From a virus, in the IMG/VR virus record IMGVR_UViG_3300047472_000309, positions 62,001 through 126,000 of that record: a stretch of DNA of 64,000 nucleotides, one strand, 5' to 3'. Position numbers and translations under genes: made by a program. Positions 25,568-32,000 of the stretch are shown piece by piece (within the stretch, counting starts at the first letter, position 1; every line of letters begins with the position of its first letter). The notes under the pieces are model-generated. The model was not told where the DNA came from, searched no databases, and saw nothing but the letters and a program-made list of their open reading frames with translations.

Positions 25568-27061
25568 ATGACGCCGCTTCTCATTCGGTATCCGCTGGAC
25601 CCGACGGGCGTAAGCCCTAACAATCTGGTCACGGGCGAAATTCAAAACCTGACCGCTAACCGTAATGTGCGCGCAATCGCGCCGTTCTACGGAGCCTTCT
25701 TTACCGAGTCGCTGGTCATCACGGACATGGCGACCAACCAGCCGCTCACCACCAGCCAGTACTATGCAGCAGAAATGTACGAGCTGCCGACCGCGCGTTA
25801 CGGTAAGGAGATCTGTGCGGTCATCCTGATCACCGACCCCACGGTCAGCAATCAGGTGTCGCTGCAGTATCAAACGCTCGGTGGTCCGTACGGTACCTCC
25901 GCGCAAGCGATTATCCAGCAGATCGAAAACCTGCAACTGGATACCCGGCCGGTGGCCTGGGGTGATATCCTGGGTCGTCCGAGCGCGTTCCCGCCTGCGT
26001 TCCACTTGCACGACATTGGTGACGTGTACGGCTTCGAGTACTTGGTGCATGCGATTGACCGTCTGCGCGACGCGATTGAAGTGGGCGATAGTGCTCAGTA
26101 CGATCAGATTTACGCGTACATCGATCACGTGCAGCAAGTGCTGCAAGCGGAAATCGATTCGGGTAATACTGCTTTCAACGCCCACTTGACGGACTTCAAC
26201 AATCCGCACAAGGTCAGTGCTGCACAGCTGAACGTCTACACCAAGCCGCAGGCCGATGCGATCACCACGCCGATCAATACGGCCGTGACCAATCACATCG
26301 CCAACCGGAACAACCCGCACGGCGTGACAGTCGCGCAGCTCAATACGTACGATGGCCCGACCATCGACACGAAGATCGCCAACGCGACCAATGCCGTGAA
26401 GATCGGTTTCACGCCGGTGCAGCAAGGCGGTGGGGCCAATCAGGGCAGCAACAAGATCTATCTGGGCTGGGATGGTTCGCGCTTGCGCCTGCAGGTGGAC
26501 TCGACCGACATCGGTGGCATCGTGTCGTACAGCGAGCTGCAATCGAACGTCAGCAATCTGCAGAACCAGATCAATGCGCGGGTGGTGATCGGTAACACGA
26601 TCGCTTACACGGGGATTAACCAGTCGGTGAGCTTCTGGGACGTCACAGCCAACGGCACGCTGTACTCGGCCCATGACATCTGGGCCTTCTGGTCCGATGA
26701 ACGCCTGAAAGAGAACATTCGTCAGATCGAGCTGCCGTTGGAGAAGATCCGTCAGCTGATGGGTATTCTCTACACCCACAACCAGCTTGCGCATGACCTC
26801 ACGGGTTGCGATACCGAAACCGAGCATATGGGTCTGCTCGCGCAGCAAGTCTTCGCCGTGTGTCCGCAGTTGGTCGGCCCAGCACCGTTTGACCTGGTCT
26901 ACGACGACGAGGGTAACGTGATTCCGGGCGTGTCGAAGTCGGGTGAGTTCTACATCACGATCAAGTACGATAAGCTCGTGGCCTTGCTGGTCGAAGGGGT
27001 CAAGGCTCTGGACGGTCAGGTGCGGGATCACGAAGCGCGCTTGCAAGCACTGGGGGTGTAA
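25568..27061 (+). CDS. Tail fibre with C-terminal peptidase S74 chaperone domain
   Basis: 497 residues. N-terminal attachment domain paralogous to the 23648 fibre; two NPH-x-V modules (FNNPHKVSAAQLNVYTKPQA; NRNNPHGVTVAQLNTYDG); then a beta-rich stalk. From about residue 376 the sequence SDERLKENIRQIELPLEKI followed by HMGLLAQQVFAVCPQLV and a final helical segment is the S74 intramolecular chaperone, which trimerises the fibre and cleaves itself off at the Ser-Asp junction (S-D of SDERLKENI). Located with three other rightward tail genes. Confidence 0.85.
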   Translation: MTPLLIRYPLDPTGVSPNNLVTGEIQNLTANRNVRAIAPFYGAFFTESLVITDMATNQPLTTSQYYAAEMYELPTARYGKEICAVILITDPTVSNQVSLQYQTLGGPYGTSAQAIIQQIENLQLDTRPVAWGDILGRPSAFPPAFHLHDIGDVYGFEYLVHAIDRLRDAIEVGDSAQYDQIYAYIDHVQQVLQAEIDSGNTAFNAHLTDFNNPHKVSAAQLNVYTKPQADAITTPINTAVTNHIANRNNPHGVTVAQLNTYDGPTIDTKIANATNAVKIGFTPVQQGGGANQGSNKIYLGWDGSRLRLQVDSTDIGGIVSYSELQSNVSNLQNQINARVVIGNTIAYTGINQSVSFWDVTANGTLYSAHDIWAFWSDERLKENIRQIELPLEKIRQLMGILYTHNQLAHDLTGCDTETEHMGLLAQQVFAVCPQLVGPAPFDLVYDDEGNVIPGVSKSGEFYITIKYDKLVALLVEGVKALDGQVRDHEARLQALGV

Positions 27062-27583: not shown

Positions 27584-28033
27584 ATGAAGCTTAATCTGAA
27601 CCAACCCGCTGCGCAGATTCTGTTGGATCTGATCTGGCGCAGTAACGGCCTCTGGTTGCAACAGGACTACATGGAGTTCGGCACGCCGGTGGCGATCGGC
27701 AATGCAGCTTCCTGTGGTCCGGATACCTTGATTACGGTCACTGCTGACCAGATCGAGGATAACCGCTTCGAAGGCAGTCAGCAGATTCTGTATCGACGCT
27801 TGCCGCTGGATGAAGTGTTGCTGCCTGCAGTGTCGTTGACGGTCGCAGCTTTGCCGTTTAACCTCGTCGATCTGCTCCCGGCGATCAATCAAGCCTATCA
27901 GCTGCAACTCACCGCAGCCGATATCGTGAATACCCAGTATGCGGACCTCACCCAGCCTGTCGTACTGGCTGCTGCGCCTGAATCGCTCTGTTATAGCGGC
28001 CAAGTGCAACTGACCGTCGTAACGGTACCTTAG
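27584..28033 (+). CDS. Hypothetical virion-type protein
   Basis: 149 residues, AAGGA before ATG. Starts MKLNLNQPAAQILLDLIWRS. Leu/Ala/Gln-rich alternating pattern (LPLDEVLLPAVSLTVAALPF) with no motif. Last gene of the fibre operon, followed by the large double hairpin at 28051-28103. A small tail or fibre-assembly component is the most likely role by position. Confidence 0.55.
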   Translation: MKLNLNQPAAQILLDLIWRSNGLWLQQDYMEFGTPVAIGNAASCGPDTLITVTADQIEDNRFEGSQQILYRRLPLDEVLLPAVSLTVAALPFNLVDLLPAINQAYQLQLTAADIVNTQYADLTQPVVLAAAPESLCYSGQVQLTVVTVP

Positions 28034-28103: not shown

Positions 28104-28149
28104 CCGCTATGACAACGCCTCTGAGAGGCTCTCAGTGCGTTTACTGCAT

Positions 28150-30033
28150 TTACTGCGCTTGGGCTTCGAGCTTACGCTTGTCCTGATCGTTCTCCGGCGG
28201 AATCTCATCGGTCTCGGCCTTGGACGGCACGTTCGCTACCCCTGCTTGTTCACCATTGGCTTGGTCGATGTCTTCGCCCGAACCATTGTTGCCTTCAGCG
28301 GTCCCCGAGGTGGAAGTCGGTACGGTACCTTCTTCACTGGCCGGGTCAGTCGCATCCGCGCTGGTCAAATCCAGTGCGTCGTCGTCCGTGCCCGTGGTGC
28401 CTGCACCGTCTGCCAGTTCACCACCCAGTCCATCACCGGTGCCTGCACCGTTCTCGTCCGGGTTGGTGCCATCAGTCGCACCTGTGACGTTGCCGCCATT
28501 GGCGGTTTCTTCGCCTGCCCCTTCCGGATTGTCTTGGTCATCGGGCTTCATCATCGACGGGTCCCCAGCGGGGTTATCGATGAGGTCCACCGGCACCTTG
28601 CCATCTTCGGTCGGATCGAGCTTGCCTTGGGATTCGGCTTCGGCCTTCTTCTGTTGCTGAATGGCTTCGACTTTATCTTCGGTTTGCTCTTGGGTCTGTT
28701 CTTCCTGTTGTTCTTGTTGCTCTTCAGGCGTAGATGCCGTGGAGCTATTGTCCTCAACAGGCGCTTCGTTCCCGGCTTGCGGCTTGGTTGCCAACTCATC
28801 CGGCGTGTCGCTAGGCGCGCTCACATCCGGCTGCTCAGGTTGCTCCAGTGGCGTACCCTCGGCTTGAGCGGCTTCGGCTTCGGGCTGTTCAGCTTGCGCC
28901 GGAGCTTCGTTCGGCGCAGGCGTCTGCGCAACGGTGGAATCGACCTGGGCCGGTTCTTCAGCTTGAGCCTGTTGCGGCAGTTCAGCCGTTACGGGTTCTT
29001 GCACTTCCGGTTCCGGTTGCACCTGCAGGTTATCCGGAATACCTTGATTGAGCGCCTGATCCAGTTGCTGCTGGGGATTCTGCGCCGTCGACGCAGCGGG
29101 CCGGGGTGCGATGTCTTGCACTGCCGGGGCCGGTGCTTCATCGCTCGCACTGGTGTGGGTGTCGAGCTGTTGCGGTTCGGCCGTATCGTTGGGCAAAGCC
29201 GGAACCGCGGTCGCGAGACCCTGATCACCTGCGCTCGTCGAACCGACGGCTGGCGCTGCGTCCCCGCGCGGCAAGAACTGGTTCTTGAGCAGGAAGAACT
29301 GATCGTAGAGCTGGGTGATCTGGTTCTGTACTTCCCCGCCCCCAGTGCGACCGTAGCCTTCGGGCAGAATCACGTCTTCCAGTGGAATCGGAAACTCAGG
29401 AATCGGCTGTTCGCGGTTCTGCACTTCCAGATCGATCTTGCACCACTCGAAGAACCCGTCGCCATCGGGCTTGGGGAACATGTCGATTTCCCACTTCAGG
29501 TTCGTGCCGATGATCGGGAAGGTGTAGCGCACCTTGCGCATGCCTTGGGCGGCGAGGAACTTGAAGATGGTGAACTCGTCCTTATTGGACGGCATGGGCA
29601 ACTCAATCTTGTCGCCCTTTTCGTTCATCACGACTTTCGAGGTACGGACGAACGAGGCTTCTTCTTCCTTGCCATCGAGCCAGGTCTTGCGCACGCGCAT
29701 CGAGCCCTTCCCGGCGATCTTCTCGGTCTTCTCGATCCGGATTTCCCACTGTTCCTGGTTTTCCTTCGACGCAGCCTGCTCGAGGTCAGAGAAGTTCACC
29801 ACGCGCGCGTAGATCGTGTGCTCGATTTCGTTGACCGGCTGACCATTGGCGATTTCTTCCATGGCCAGATAGGGTCGACCAATCGGGTTGTGCTCGATCA
29901 CGACAGGCGGGCTCGGATACAGGTGACCGAACTCCTTGCGAAATGACATGATCAACGCGTCTTCATGCGAAGGCGGTTGGTTCACGTTGATAAACGCATT
30001 CTCGAGGGCCAGTCGCATCAGTTGACGGCGCAT
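28150..30033 (-). CDS. CYTH-domain protein with a long disordered acidic tail
   Basis: 627 residues from the ATG at 30033 (GGAG, 7 nt). Residues 67-205 match the CYTH triphosphate-tunnel fold: E69-I-E71 at the start, RVR (113-115), TSK (131-133), MRKVRY (165-170), WEIDMF (181-186) and KIDLEV (199-204). The usual first motif is E-x-E-x-K; here Thr takes the place of Lys. CYTH enzymes hydrolyse triphosphates (thiamine triphosphate, RNA 5' ends, polyphosphate) or make cyclic AMP. Residues about 230-627 are Gln, Pro, Ala, Glu and Asp-rich with almost no aromatic residues, so probably disordered. No close phage precedent is known to me. Convergent with the fibre operon. Confidence 0.65.
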   Translation of the reverse strand: MRRQLMRLALENAFINVNQPPSHEDALIMSFRKEFGHLYPSPPVVIEHNPIGRPYLAMEEIANGQPVNEIEHTIYARVVNFSDLEQAASKENQEQWEIRIEKTEKIAGKGSMRVRKTWLDGKEEEASFVRTSKVVMNEKGDKIELPMPSNKDEFTIFKFLAAQGMRKVRYTFPIIGTNLKWEIDMFPKPDGDGFFEWCKIDLEVQNREQPIPEFPIPLEDVILPEGYGRTGGGEVQNQITQLYDQFFLLKNQFLPRGDAAPAVGSTSAGDQGLATAVPALPNDTAEPQQLDTHTSASDEAPAPAVQDIAPRPAASTAQNPQQQLDQALNQGIPDNLQVQPEPEVQEPVTAELPQQAQAEEPAQVDSTVAQTPAPNEAPAQAEQPEAEAAQAEGTPLEQPEQPDVSAPSDTPDELATKPQAGNEAPVEDNSSTASTPEEQQEQQEEQTQEQTEDKVEAIQQQKKAEAESQGKLDPTEDGKVPVDLIDNPAGDPSMMKPDDQDNPEGAGEETANGGNVTGATDGTNPDENGAGTGDGLGGELADGAGTTGTDDDALDLTSADATDPASEEGTVPTSTSGTAEGNNGSGEDIDQANGEQAGVANVPSKAETDEIPPENDQDKRKLEAQAQ

Positions 30034-30061
30034 TGTATTACTCCAATTGTTACACGCTGGT

Positions 30062-30553
30062 TTACTCTTCTCCGCCAGTGATGACGGTAAGCACTTCTTT
30101 GGCAGTGTGCCAGAGTGCGACCAGAGCGGGGTTGTTGGCAGCATGACCTTCACGGATGGCGACCATCGCCGTAGCCCCGGTCACGATCAGGATGACAGCC
30201 GCGGCGAGCAGAAAGGCTCCCTTCATGAAGAAGATCTTCAGCTTGTGCTCTTCCTGATCCTCCGTCTCGGCCTCCGGCTTCGGTACTGGGGCACCCGGCA
30301 GGGGACCAGGAAGCTCACCGCTTGCTTGCAGGTACACATACAGCAGTTCGACTTGGTCTTCGGAGTCCATCGCGAGAATGGCCTCCTTCAACTCTCGTCC
30401 GGTTGACAGAGGTGTCATGTTCGGTAGTTCATCGACATGCGCAACCTTCTTGTTGTAGGCTTCTACCAAGACATCCACCGGCAGACGTCCTGGCTTGTGA
30501 TCCGAAACCGCTCGCGTGTCGCTGATCCCCTTAAGGACGCGTTCCACTAACAT
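30062..30553 (-). CDS. Single-pass membrane protein downstream of the spanin genes
   Basis: 163 residues from the ATG at 30553 (GGGG, 6 nt), overlapping the lipoprotein gene by 23 nt. Soluble N-terminal 100 residues ending Pro-rich and acidic (PGPLPGAPVPKPEAETEDQE), then a membrane helix at about 108-132 (GAFLLAAAVILIVTGATAMV) and a short tail. Position directly after a spanin pair suggests a lysis function such as a holin or antiholin, but one helix and a large cytoplasmic part are also compatible with other roles. Confidence 0.6.
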   Translation of the reverse strand: MLVERVLKGISDTRAVSDHKPGRLPVDVLVEAYNKKVAHVDELPNMTPLSTGRELKEAILAMDSEDQVELLYVYLQASGELPGPLPGAPVPKPEAETEDQEEHKLKIFFMKGAFLLAAAVILIVTGATAMVAIREGHAANNPALVALWHTAKEVLTVITGGEE

Positions 30554-30863
30554 TGCTTGCCCCTTGCGGAGATGCCGCAAAGACGGCGTTGTTCTGTGTT
30601 TTCCAGTCCTGCAAGGAACTGATGTGACGATTGGCCGTGGCAACGTTTGCCGTTTGCGCATCGTACTTCGATTCCCACAGGTCGCTGCGCTGCTTCCAGG
30701 AGAGCGTGCCATAGCTCGTTTGATCAGGCGGGGCTTCCACCGTGGCCTTCACAAGCAGTGCGTCGGGTGGCGCGACGTACAGGTTCTTCAGTTCCGGTAC
30801 ACCGGTTTGTGCACACCCCGCCAGGCTTGCTGTCACCAGCACAGCCAGGATTGTCTTTTTCAT
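30531..30863 (-). CDS. Outer-membrane spanin-like lipoprotein (Rz1-type)
   Basis: 110 residues from the ATG at 30863. MKKTILAVLVTASLAGC is a classic lipoprotein signal (lipobox L-A-G-C, Cys17), followed by a region with a moderate Pro content and a helix. It begins 16 bp after the gene for a membrane protein with a long periplasmic part (30880-31425), as in separated Rz/Rz1 pairs. The two would span the periplasm and fuse the membranes at lysis. Longer than most Rz1 proteins and not very Pro-rich, so some caution is needed. Confidence 0.6.
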   Translation of the reverse strand: MKKTILAVLVTASLAGCAQTGVPELKNLYVAPPDALLVKATVEAPPDQTSYGTLSWKQRSDLWESKYDAQTANVATANRHISSLQDWKTQNNAVFAASPQGASNVSGTRP

Positions 30864-30879
30864 GATGGTCTCTCGCTTC

Positions 30880-31425
30880 TTACTGAGCTTGCGGCAGTGC
30901 TGTGCACTTGGCATCAGCGTTGTCAATGGCCGCACAATACTTCATCCAACTCCCCGTGAGCTGAACGGCACTTACTTCGGCGTCACGCCCCACGGGCACA
31001 ACGTCACCGGCTTGATCACTGGTAATGGTCTTGACCGGCACAACTGGTTTAGGCTTAACTGTGTTCGAGGGCGTGCTTGTCGCCGACGTCGCCGGAGCGA
31101 CAACACTTGTCGTCGGATTGGCGTACTTCGAATCGATCTGCTTGGTCTGGTCTGCGACCCAGGCGTCGATCTTGCTACCCGTGGCAGCCGCTGCTTGATC
31201 GGCCTTCACCGACGAAGCCACCACCGCATCGGTCACTGCAGCGGTACTCGCCTGCTGAACGATCGTGGTTGCCTGGCCTTTGATGACCACAGCGTCTGAA
31301 CCGATCTTCTGGTTATCACTGAGCACGGTGTGATACTCGTGCACCGCGAACCAGCCGAGCAGTCCGATAACCGCGATAATTGCTGCCCCGATCGCGAGTT
31401 TGATTTGCCATGTGAGGGTGCTCAT
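30880..31425 (-). CDS. Inner-membrane spanin-like protein (Rz-type)
   Basis: 181 residues. N-terminal membrane anchor at about 7-28 (IKLAIGAAIIAVIGLLGWFA), then a long Ala/Val/Gln-rich helical periplasmic region with coiled-coil character (DAVVIKGQATTIVQQASTAA), and a Pro/Thr-rich segment. The ATG overlaps the RuvC-like gene's stop (ATGA). The N-in/C-out topology and the lipoprotein gene that follows support an i-spanin. The C-terminal Cys pair (MKYC...AKC) could form a disulfide. Confidence 0.6.
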   Translation of the reverse strand: MSTLTWQIKLAIGAAIIAVIGLLGWFAVHEYHTVLSDNQKIGSDAVVIKGQATTIVQQASTAAVTDAVVASSVKADQAAAATGSKIDAWVADQTKQIDSKYANPTTSVVAPATSATSTPSNTVKPKPVVPVKTITSDQAGDVVPVGRDAEVSAVQLTGSWMKYCAAIDNADAKCTALPQAQ

Positions 31426-32000
31426 CTGTGTTGCTCCCGTAGGATTTTAAGTCGACAGTACGCCACGGCGAGCGCGTCGATCGAGTGCTCATCCAGCATC
31501 TCAAGCGCAACCGGTCCGTTATAGTTTAAATCCGGTAGACGCATCAGTGCTGCCTTGACTTCATCCTTCTTGGCGTGTGAGGTTGCCCCCACGGCCTTCT
31601 TGACGCTGGGCGGGTCGATCATAAAGAGCGACAGCCAGCAGTCGTATCGCCATAAGGCACTCCGGATCGCATCGACAGTCTCTGTCAATGCGCCGTATGC
31701 CTGAGGTCGAAATTGACTGTAAAACGGAGACTCTGATGCAACCAGGTTAGGACGGTAATACTCGAAGATTTCCACCAGGTTATCTTCGTGGGCTGCAATA
31801 CGCTCAGCCCGTGCACCATGGGTGTCGCCAAACCAGGTGTCTTTCGCCAGTTTCGACCCGACGAAAGTAAACGCAGTGCTCTCGATGATTTCGAGCTTCA
31901 CTACGTCTACTCTCAAGGCACCCATTCCAAGTGTCTCGCTCCCAGGGTCGATACCGACGATGCATCCGATGGGGGATGCACCTTCCGGTATTACTAACAT
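31422..32000 (-). CDS. RuvC-like Holliday junction resolvase
   Basis: 192 residues. GIDPGSETLG (D18) is the first RuvC motif, LVASESPFYS supplies the second acidic residue, and DEHSIDALAVAYC near the C terminus supplies the last two, so the catalytic set looks intact. RuvC-fold enzymes resolve four-way junctions and branched DNA before packaging. Coupled by ATGA to the spanin-like gene and 10 bp downstream of the structural gene at 32010. An RNase H-fold nuclease of another subfamily is possible, but motif spacing fits RuvC. Confidence 0.85.
   Translation of the reverse strand: MLVIPEGASPIGCIVGIDPGSETLGMGALRVDVVKLEIIESTAFTFVGSKLAKDTWFGDTHGARAERIAAHEDNLVEIFEYYRPNLVASESPFYSQFRPQAYGALTETVDAIRSALWRYDCWLSLFMIDPPSVKKAVGATSHAKKDEVKAALMRLPDLNYNGPVALEMLDEHSIDALAVAYCRLKILREQHR

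What the first reader, a model, noticed from the sequence alone, without database searches (positions are those of the whole stretch)
28150..30033. CYTH triphosphate-tunnel domain with a 400-residue disordered tail
The N-terminal CYTH motifs (EIE, RVR, TSK, KVRY, WEIDMF, KIDLEV) are well kept apart from the K of E-x-E-x-K. CYTH enzymes act on triphosphates or make cyclic nucleotides. Fusion to a very long acidic Q/P/A/E-rich tail is unusual; it could anchor the enzyme in the virion or in a phage-made compartment.
Basis: partly seen in the sequence, partly recalled or inferred. Interest (0 to 1): 0.65.

Follow-up and report, generated by a model that had tools for sequence, protein, structure and literature searches.

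The report
Packaged tunnel-enzyme of giant phage heads
This giant-phage gene makes a triphosphate-cutting tunnel enzyme whose relatives carry a cut-off tag at the front, and one relative has been found inside virus heads, so the enzyme is probably packed into the virus and injected with its DNA; the long floppy tail is an optional extra found only in some lineages.

Summary
In detail: window 28150-30033(-) encodes 627 residues, a CYTH/TTM beta-barrel (AlphaFold barrel pLDDT >90; nine of the ten best PDB fold matches are CYTH/TTM proteins) plus a 372-residue disordered acidic tail (net charge -67, no aromatics). The window lies in a 310-kb phiKZ-type phage with its own prohead protease. In 48 relatives every tunnel residue is kept except the Lys of ExExK, which none has. 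Motifs argue for a triphosphatase, not a cyclase or thiamine triphosphatase. The tail is not the key: 31 of 47 relatives lack one. The conserved extra is at the front: an [S/A/G]-x-E site 9-12 residues before E-x-E in 41 of 48 members (shuffles: mean 4.7, maximum 11), the cleavage motif of phiKZ-type prohead proteases. Profile comparison joins the family to Salmonella phage SPN3US gp225 (E=6e-10) and lines the site up with gp225's mass-spectrometry-mapped cleavage A-R-E24. gp225 is a published head protein of unknown function; its model also matches TTM enzymes. Conclusion: a triphosphatase-type tunnel enzyme packed in the head, trimmed by the prohead protease and probably injected. Substrate, virion presence in this phage, and the tail's role are inferred.

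The parts
28150..30033 (-). whole gene, 627 aa, ATG start, GGAG ribosome site at 30041-30044
   Evidence: start matches FLC9 gp73
30001..30033 (-). residues 1-11, MRRQLMRLALE: short N-terminal propeptide ending in A-L-E, like the short N-terminal pieces of the compact relatives (e.g. MTSLLRLALE, MQSLLKLALE)
   Evidence: ALE-11 is kept in window, L005, L006 and FLC9; inferred from motif
29857..30000 (-). residues 12-59, extra N-terminal stretch of this clade, well conserved but low model confidence, ending in a second candidate site A-M-E59 (V-M-E in FLC9, L016, L017)
   Evidence: register with gp225 A-R-E24
29368..29835 (-). residues 67-222, CYTH/TTM beta-barrel with tunnel residues E69, E71, R113, R115, K133, E144, K167, R169, E182, D184, K199, D201, E203
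29293..29337 (-). residues 233-247, C-terminal helix in the place of the TTM plug helix
   Evidence: role inferred from PMC8233210
28153..29268 (-). residues 256-627, disordered acidic tail, net charge -67, lineage-specific
28555..28653 (-). tail residues 461-493, one of two tail stretches conserved between window clade and FLC9 clade
28381..28485 (-). tail residues 517-551, second conserved tail stretch
30062..30712 (-). upstream gene of the same strand, with a membrane-spanning stretch, no family
30531..31425 (-). overlapping spanin pair (outer 30531-30935, inner 30880-31425), upstream on the same strand
31422..32000 (-). RuvC-like resolvase, upstream on the same strand; its cluster is found in 37 of the compared loci

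Best explanation
The protein is a triphosphatase-type CYTH (triphosphate tunnel) enzyme that phiKZ-type jumbo phages pack inside the head. Its N-terminus carries a short propeptide that brings it into the prohead and is cut off by the phage's prohead protease after [S/A/G]-x-E. The mature enzyme then rides with the DNA, most likely enters the cell at the start of infection, and hydrolyses a triphosphate there (NTP, inorganic triphosphate, RNA 5' end or a triphosphate-bearing signal). The acidic disordered tail is a clade-specific addition that stays attached and probably keeps the protein soluble or helps packing or passage through the tail. Shown here: fold (by prediction), tunnel residues, conserved site, homology to SPN3US gp225. 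Shown by others: gp225 is in heads and is cut at A-R-E24. Inferred: virion presence and cutting in this phage, injection, activity, substrate, tail role.
For: Fold: barrel pLDDT 92-97; top PDB matches AtTTM3, YgiF, NeuTTM, BH2851 and PH1819. Tunnel residues equivalent to AtTTM3 E2, E4, R52, R54, K76, E90, E169 and E171 (PMC4641920) are invariant in 48 sequences, with D for E169 (equivalences by motif order). Site: [SAG]-x-E 9-12 residues before E-x-E in 41 of 48; shuffled mean 4.65, maximum 11 in 2000; 16 of 20 after thinning to below 45% identity. Background: 76% of the family versus 14% of 716 neighbouring proteins have [SAG]-x-E in residues 5-25. YgiF-type CYTH proteins have no such piece; their E-x-E begins at residue 4. 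gp225 link: profile hit 3.1e-4, hhalign E=5.7e-10, probability 96.6, with A57-M58-E59 on A22-R23-E24; gp225 model matches TTM folds. gp225: 'Head, low abundance', cleaved at ARE-24 (PMC10052503). The phiKZ protease cuts at S/A/G-X-E, that of 201phi2-1 at S/A/G/T-X-E (PMC5694885). The window phage encodes the protease (E=7.6e-42) and the nuclear shell protein (E=5.6e-34).
Against: No virion proteome of this phage or of any phage with a long-tailed member was available. gp225 is distant and aligns with gaps in the middle. In FLC9, L016 and L017 the site nearest the barrel is V-M-E, which does not fit the motif, so only ALE-11 is kept in the whole clade. L038, L042, L047, L056 and L069 lack a site in the usual place. 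phiKZ, 201phi2-1, OBP, EL, RAY and Noxifer have no detectable member, so it is not a core head protein. The missing Lys of ExExK could lower activity.
Confidence: 0.66

Rival explanations
1. It is an ordinary cytoplasmic CYTH triphosphatase made during infection (NTP pool clean-up, as Iyer and colleagues suggested for jumbo phages, or RNA 5'-triphosphatase linked to the phage RNA polymerases), and the N-terminal [SAG]-x-E is part of the fold, not a cleavage site.
For: PMC7824862 states that CYTH triphosphatases are scattered over jumbo phages and proposes NTP degradation. In 11 loci including DT01 the gene follows a non-virion RNA polymerase gene, and in Goslar it follows polymerase and helicase genes.
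Against: gp225 is in heads and is cut at the aligned position. The region is outside the confident fold (pLDDT below 50 for residues 40-58). Bacterial YgiF-type CYTH proteins lack the extension.
Confidence: 0.2
2. It is a head protein that uses the CYTH fold structurally (no catalysis), with the acidic tail acting as filler or DNA mimic in the capsid.
For: The Lys of ExExK is lost in all 48; the tail is strongly acidic; the Mediator complex, not an enzyme of this kind, also appears among the fold matches.
Against: Both metal-site acids, the R-x-R pair and the other basic tunnel residues are invariant in 48 sequences and mostly kept in gp225; a dead barrel would be expected to lose them.
Confidence: 0.1
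3. One reading: the long C-terminal tail itself anchors the enzyme in the virion or in a phage compartment.
For: Two tail stretches are conserved between the window and FLC9 clades. Prohead-protease motifs A-x-E are rarer than in shuffles of this clade's tails (8 against 18.4, z -2.7; reversed motif not depleted), as if the tail met the protease and must survive it.
Against: 31 of 47 relatives have no tail. The depletion is not seen in the other lineages' tails, other spacings also depart from shuffles, and the three tails share ancestry.
Confidence: 0.1
4. It is a class IV adenylyl cyclase that makes cyclic nucleotides.
For: CYTH fold only.
Against: All three published signature features of cyclases fail in 48 of 48.
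Confidence: 0.03

Closest known systems
SPN3US gp225 (phrog_7768), Salmonella giant phage head protein
   Same: TTM-type fold by prediction, same motif order E-x-E, R-x-R, T-x-K, E, D-x-D, K-x-E-x-E, and a prohead-protease site just before E-x-E
   Different: distant sequence (22% identity in the profile alignment), no tail, K-x-R strand replaced by R-R-I; not named as CYTH in the papers I could search
phrog_14791 family: RSL2, RSF1, FLC6/8/9, LucasX LUCX_268, DT01 PA10_00027 ('CthTTM like'), RP12 'CYTH domain-containing protein', Goslar gp163
   Same: same family, one copy per genome in the ten genomes searched
   Different: most are 205-230 aa without a tail; Chiangmaivirus members have an acidic linker, several with an extra domain, in place of the long tail
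Inorganic triphosphatases NeuTTM (NE1496), YgiF, AtTTM3
   Same: fold and nearly all tunnel residues
   Different: they keep the Lys of ExExK, and YgiF-type proteins start directly at it with no propeptide
phiKZ gp93 (cut at SLE-13), SPN3US gp45 (ASE-20), and T4 head proteins with capsid-targeting sequences
   Same: short N-terminal piece cut after a glutamate by the prohead protease (PMC5694885, PMC10052503)
   Different: none of these is known as a tunnel enzyme

Membership tests
CYTH / triphosphate tunnel metalloenzyme superfamily | eight-stranded beta-barrel tunnel | tested here: met
   AlphaFold model and Foldseek
CYTH / triphosphate tunnel metalloenzyme superfamily | N-terminal E-x-E of ExExK | tested here: met
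   E69 and E71 in 48 of 48
CYTH / triphosphate tunnel metalloenzyme superfamily | Lys of ExExK | tested here: not met
   V, T, E, I, M or D in all 48; so a divergent branch, placed by fold and the other tunnel residues
CYTH / triphosphate tunnel metalloenzyme superfamily | basic tunnel residues (R-x-R, Lys of beta-4) and metal-binding acids on the last strand | tested here: met
   R113, R115, K133, E144, D201, E203 invariant
CYTH / triphosphate tunnel metalloenzyme superfamily | match to the Pfam CYTH model PF01928 | tested here: inconclusive
   10 of 48 relatives match, best E=4.5e-6; the window protein does not
Class IV adenylyl cyclase | HF before ExExK, neutral residue at first Arg of R-x-R, Ala for second Glu of beta-8 | tested here: not met
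   0 of 48 for each (criteria PMC8233210)
Thiamine triphosphatase | W/Y-x-R-x-R | tested here: not met
   no W or Y at that place in 48
Inorganic triphosphatase / NTPase-type TTM | hydrolysis of PPPi or NTP | not testable with these tools
   residues fit; no assay
Prohead-protease-processed phiKZ-type head protein | [S/A/G]-x-E site in the N-terminal part | tested here: met
   41 of 48 at the usual place, shuffles 4.65; background 14%
Prohead-protease-processed phiKZ-type head protein | phage encodes the protease | tested here: met
   G000:44557-45210, E=7.6e-42 to SPN3US gp245
Prohead-protease-processed phiKZ-type head protein | protein found, trimmed, in virions | not testable with these tools
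   known only for the distant homologue gp225; supplementary proteome tables of RP31 were out of reach

The most novel reading that the evidence does not exclude
Giant phages pack and inject a ready-made triphosphatase that acts in the first minutes of infection, before any phage gene is expressed, on RNA 5' ends made by the co-injected virion RNA polymerase or on a triphosphate-bearing host defence or stress signal.
Probability: 0.3. Interest if true: 0.75.

Novelty: new variant of a known kind. Interest (0 to 1): 0.6.

Why it matters
Many of the roughly 50 head proteins of giant phages have no known function, and what they inject besides RNA polymerase is an open question. This gives a predicted enzyme class to one mapped but nameless head protein (gp225) and to a family of unknown function in dozens of other phages, and it predicts exact N-termini that ordinary virion mass spectrometry can check.

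Tried and rejected
Pfam on the window protein: nothing. PDB sequence search with 9 and 48 sequences: no CYTH match, then NeuTTM only at E=0.03. hhalign to YgiF-type CYTH: weak, probability 56, so the fold rests on prediction plus motifs. Idea that the tail is a C-terminal propeptide cut by the prohead protease: protease motifs are not enriched there, rather the reverse. Idea that depletion of those motifs proves exposure to the protease: not kept as evidence, since other spacings also depart from shuffles and other lineages' tails show none. Antisense 603-aa frame 28135-29946(+): taken as a by-product of composition; the minus strand is under selection. Family as a core gene of nucleus-forming phages: rejected, six of seven reference phages show no member. 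Looking for RP31 virion proteins: the list is in a supplement not available.

Full report
What is there. The frame 28150-30033 on the minus strand codes for 627 residues from an ATG with a good ribosome site. The window is bases 62001-126000 of a 310,654-base viral record. That phage encodes a relative of the phiKZ nuclear shell protein (26% identity, E=5.6e-34) and of the SPN3US prohead protease (40%, E=7.6e-42), so it belongs to the phiKZ-type jumbo phages. The nearest named relative is FLC9 gp73 of a Burkholderia glumae phage (65%).

Fold. Forty-eight sequences (the window and IMG/VR relatives) were aligned. AlphaFold gives a barrel with mean pLDDT 92-97 for residues 71-220, and low confidence for residues 1-12 and 40-58. 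Nine of the ten best PDB matches are CYTH/TTM proteins (AtTTM3, YgiF, NeuTTM, BH2851, PH1819); the other is a chain of the human Mediator complex. TM-scores are modest (0.3-0.5), in part because of the loose N-terminus. Against predicted viral structures the best matches are family members and phage CYTH proteins, then viral mRNA capping enzymes. Pfam recognises 10 of the 48 sequences but not the window protein.

Tunnel. E69, E71, R113, R115, K133, E144, K167, R169, D184, K199, D201 and E203 are invariant, E182 nearly so. By motif order these match the metal and substrate residues of AtTTM3 (PMC4641920). The Lys of ExExK is missing in all. By the published class rules (PMC8233210) the family is neither a class IV cyclase nor a thiamine triphosphatase, which leaves the triphosphatase class.

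Tail. Of 47 complete relatives 31 have fewer than 20 residues after the barrel region, 11 have an acidic extension and 5 another one. The window clade's tail is 372 residues, net charge -67, without aromatics, and is under selection, less strictly than the rest. Acidic tails occur in several lineages (L021, L022, L033, L046, L062), and Chiangmaivirus members carry an acidic linker.

The front end. The conserved feature outside the barrel is an [S/A/G]-x-E at 9-12 residues before E-x-E: 41 of 48, against 4.65 expected and at most 11 in 2000 shuffles; 16 of 20 after thinning. Chiangmaivirus-type members have S-N-E (L025, L026, L033); by eye on the translations, Goslar gp163 has S-G-E and LucasX S-M-E. 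Only 14% of 716 neighbouring proteins have such a site in residues 5-25, against 76% of this family. YgiF-type CYTH proteins start at the E-x-E and have no such piece. S/A/G-X-E is the cleavage motif of the phiKZ prohead protease, A-X-E that of SPN3US (PMC5694885).

The link to a known head protein. The 48-sequence profile finds SPN3US ORF225 (E=3.1e-4); the number follows from the protein accessions and from an amber position listed for gene 225 that falls in this frame. Profile against profile gives E=5.7e-10 and places A57-M58-E59 on A22-R23-E24. PMC10052503 reports gp225 as a low-abundance head protein of unknown function, cut at ARE-24. In its family A22, E24, S25, E31, E33, R69, R71, K83, E93, K171, E173 and E175 are invariant, and its model matches TTM domains of the VTC polyphosphate polymerase and the vaccinia capping enzyme. 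An amber allele in gene 225 was the third most frequent in a pool of 50 mutant candidates (PMC5105663), which hints at importance but is not proof. Searches of the paper library found no paper that calls gp225 a CYTH protein.

Within the window clade the site next to the barrel is A-M-E in the window and its close relatives but V-M-E in FLC9, L016 and L017; A-L-E at residues 9-11 is kept in all. I therefore take ALE-11 as the more likely cut in this clade, with AME-59 as a possible second one.

Surroundings. The gene follows, on the same strand, a RuvC-like resolvase, an overlapping spanin pair and a membrane protein, a late-type set of genes, which suits a virion protein (inference). In another group of phages it follows a non-virion RNA polymerase gene.

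Mechanism, step by step. Made late (inferred from neighbours). Brought into the prohead by its N-terminal piece and trimmed after E (motif shown; event shown only for gp225). Packed with the DNA (shown only for gp225). Injected (inferred from the general behaviour of such head proteins). Hydrolyses a triphosphate with two metal ions (inferred from residues). Substrate open.

What was known. CYTH proteins in jumbo phages had been noted in one sentence with an NTP-degradation idea (PMC7824862), and single members carry CYTH annotations (DT01, RP12). New here, as far as the searchable papers go, are the packaging signal, the join with gp225, and the view of the tail as optional.

Noticed in passing
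window 30531-31425 (-): Overlapping inner and outer spanin genes directly upstream, with a membrane protein of no family at 30062-30712 that might be a holin.
   Followed up: partly
L046:5920-7731 (and L049): One 603-aa frame in which the CYTH barrel is split by an acidic insertion of roughly 240 residues between the K-x-R strand and the E-x-D strand.
   Followed up: no
L025:5914-7458, L012:5914-7524, L009:9914-11497: Chiangmaivirus-type members carry, after an acidic linker, an extra C-terminal domain with a hydrophobic stretch; no Pfam match for L025.
   Followed up: partly
L034:5968-6957, L039:5983-6951, L030:5965-7089: Another kind of C-terminal extension with a shared stretch (MGARFVPMPEGLGF in L034, MGARSVYMPEGLGY in L039, LGARLVKLSEGRGY in L030); no Pfam match for L030 or L034.
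   Followed up: no
window 28135-29946 (+): Long antisense open frame (603 aa) opposite the gene, probably a by-product of base composition.
   Followed up: partly
window 25568-27061 (+): Tail-fibre-like protein whose C-terminal part matches the ends of many phage tail fibres, next to two small genes, one of which (27584-28033) matches virion protein families.
   Followed up: no
L011, L047, L048, L056, L057, L059, L061-L064, L068: In this group the CYTH gene follows a non-virion RNA polymerase subunit gene rather than RuvC and spanin genes.
   Followed up: partly
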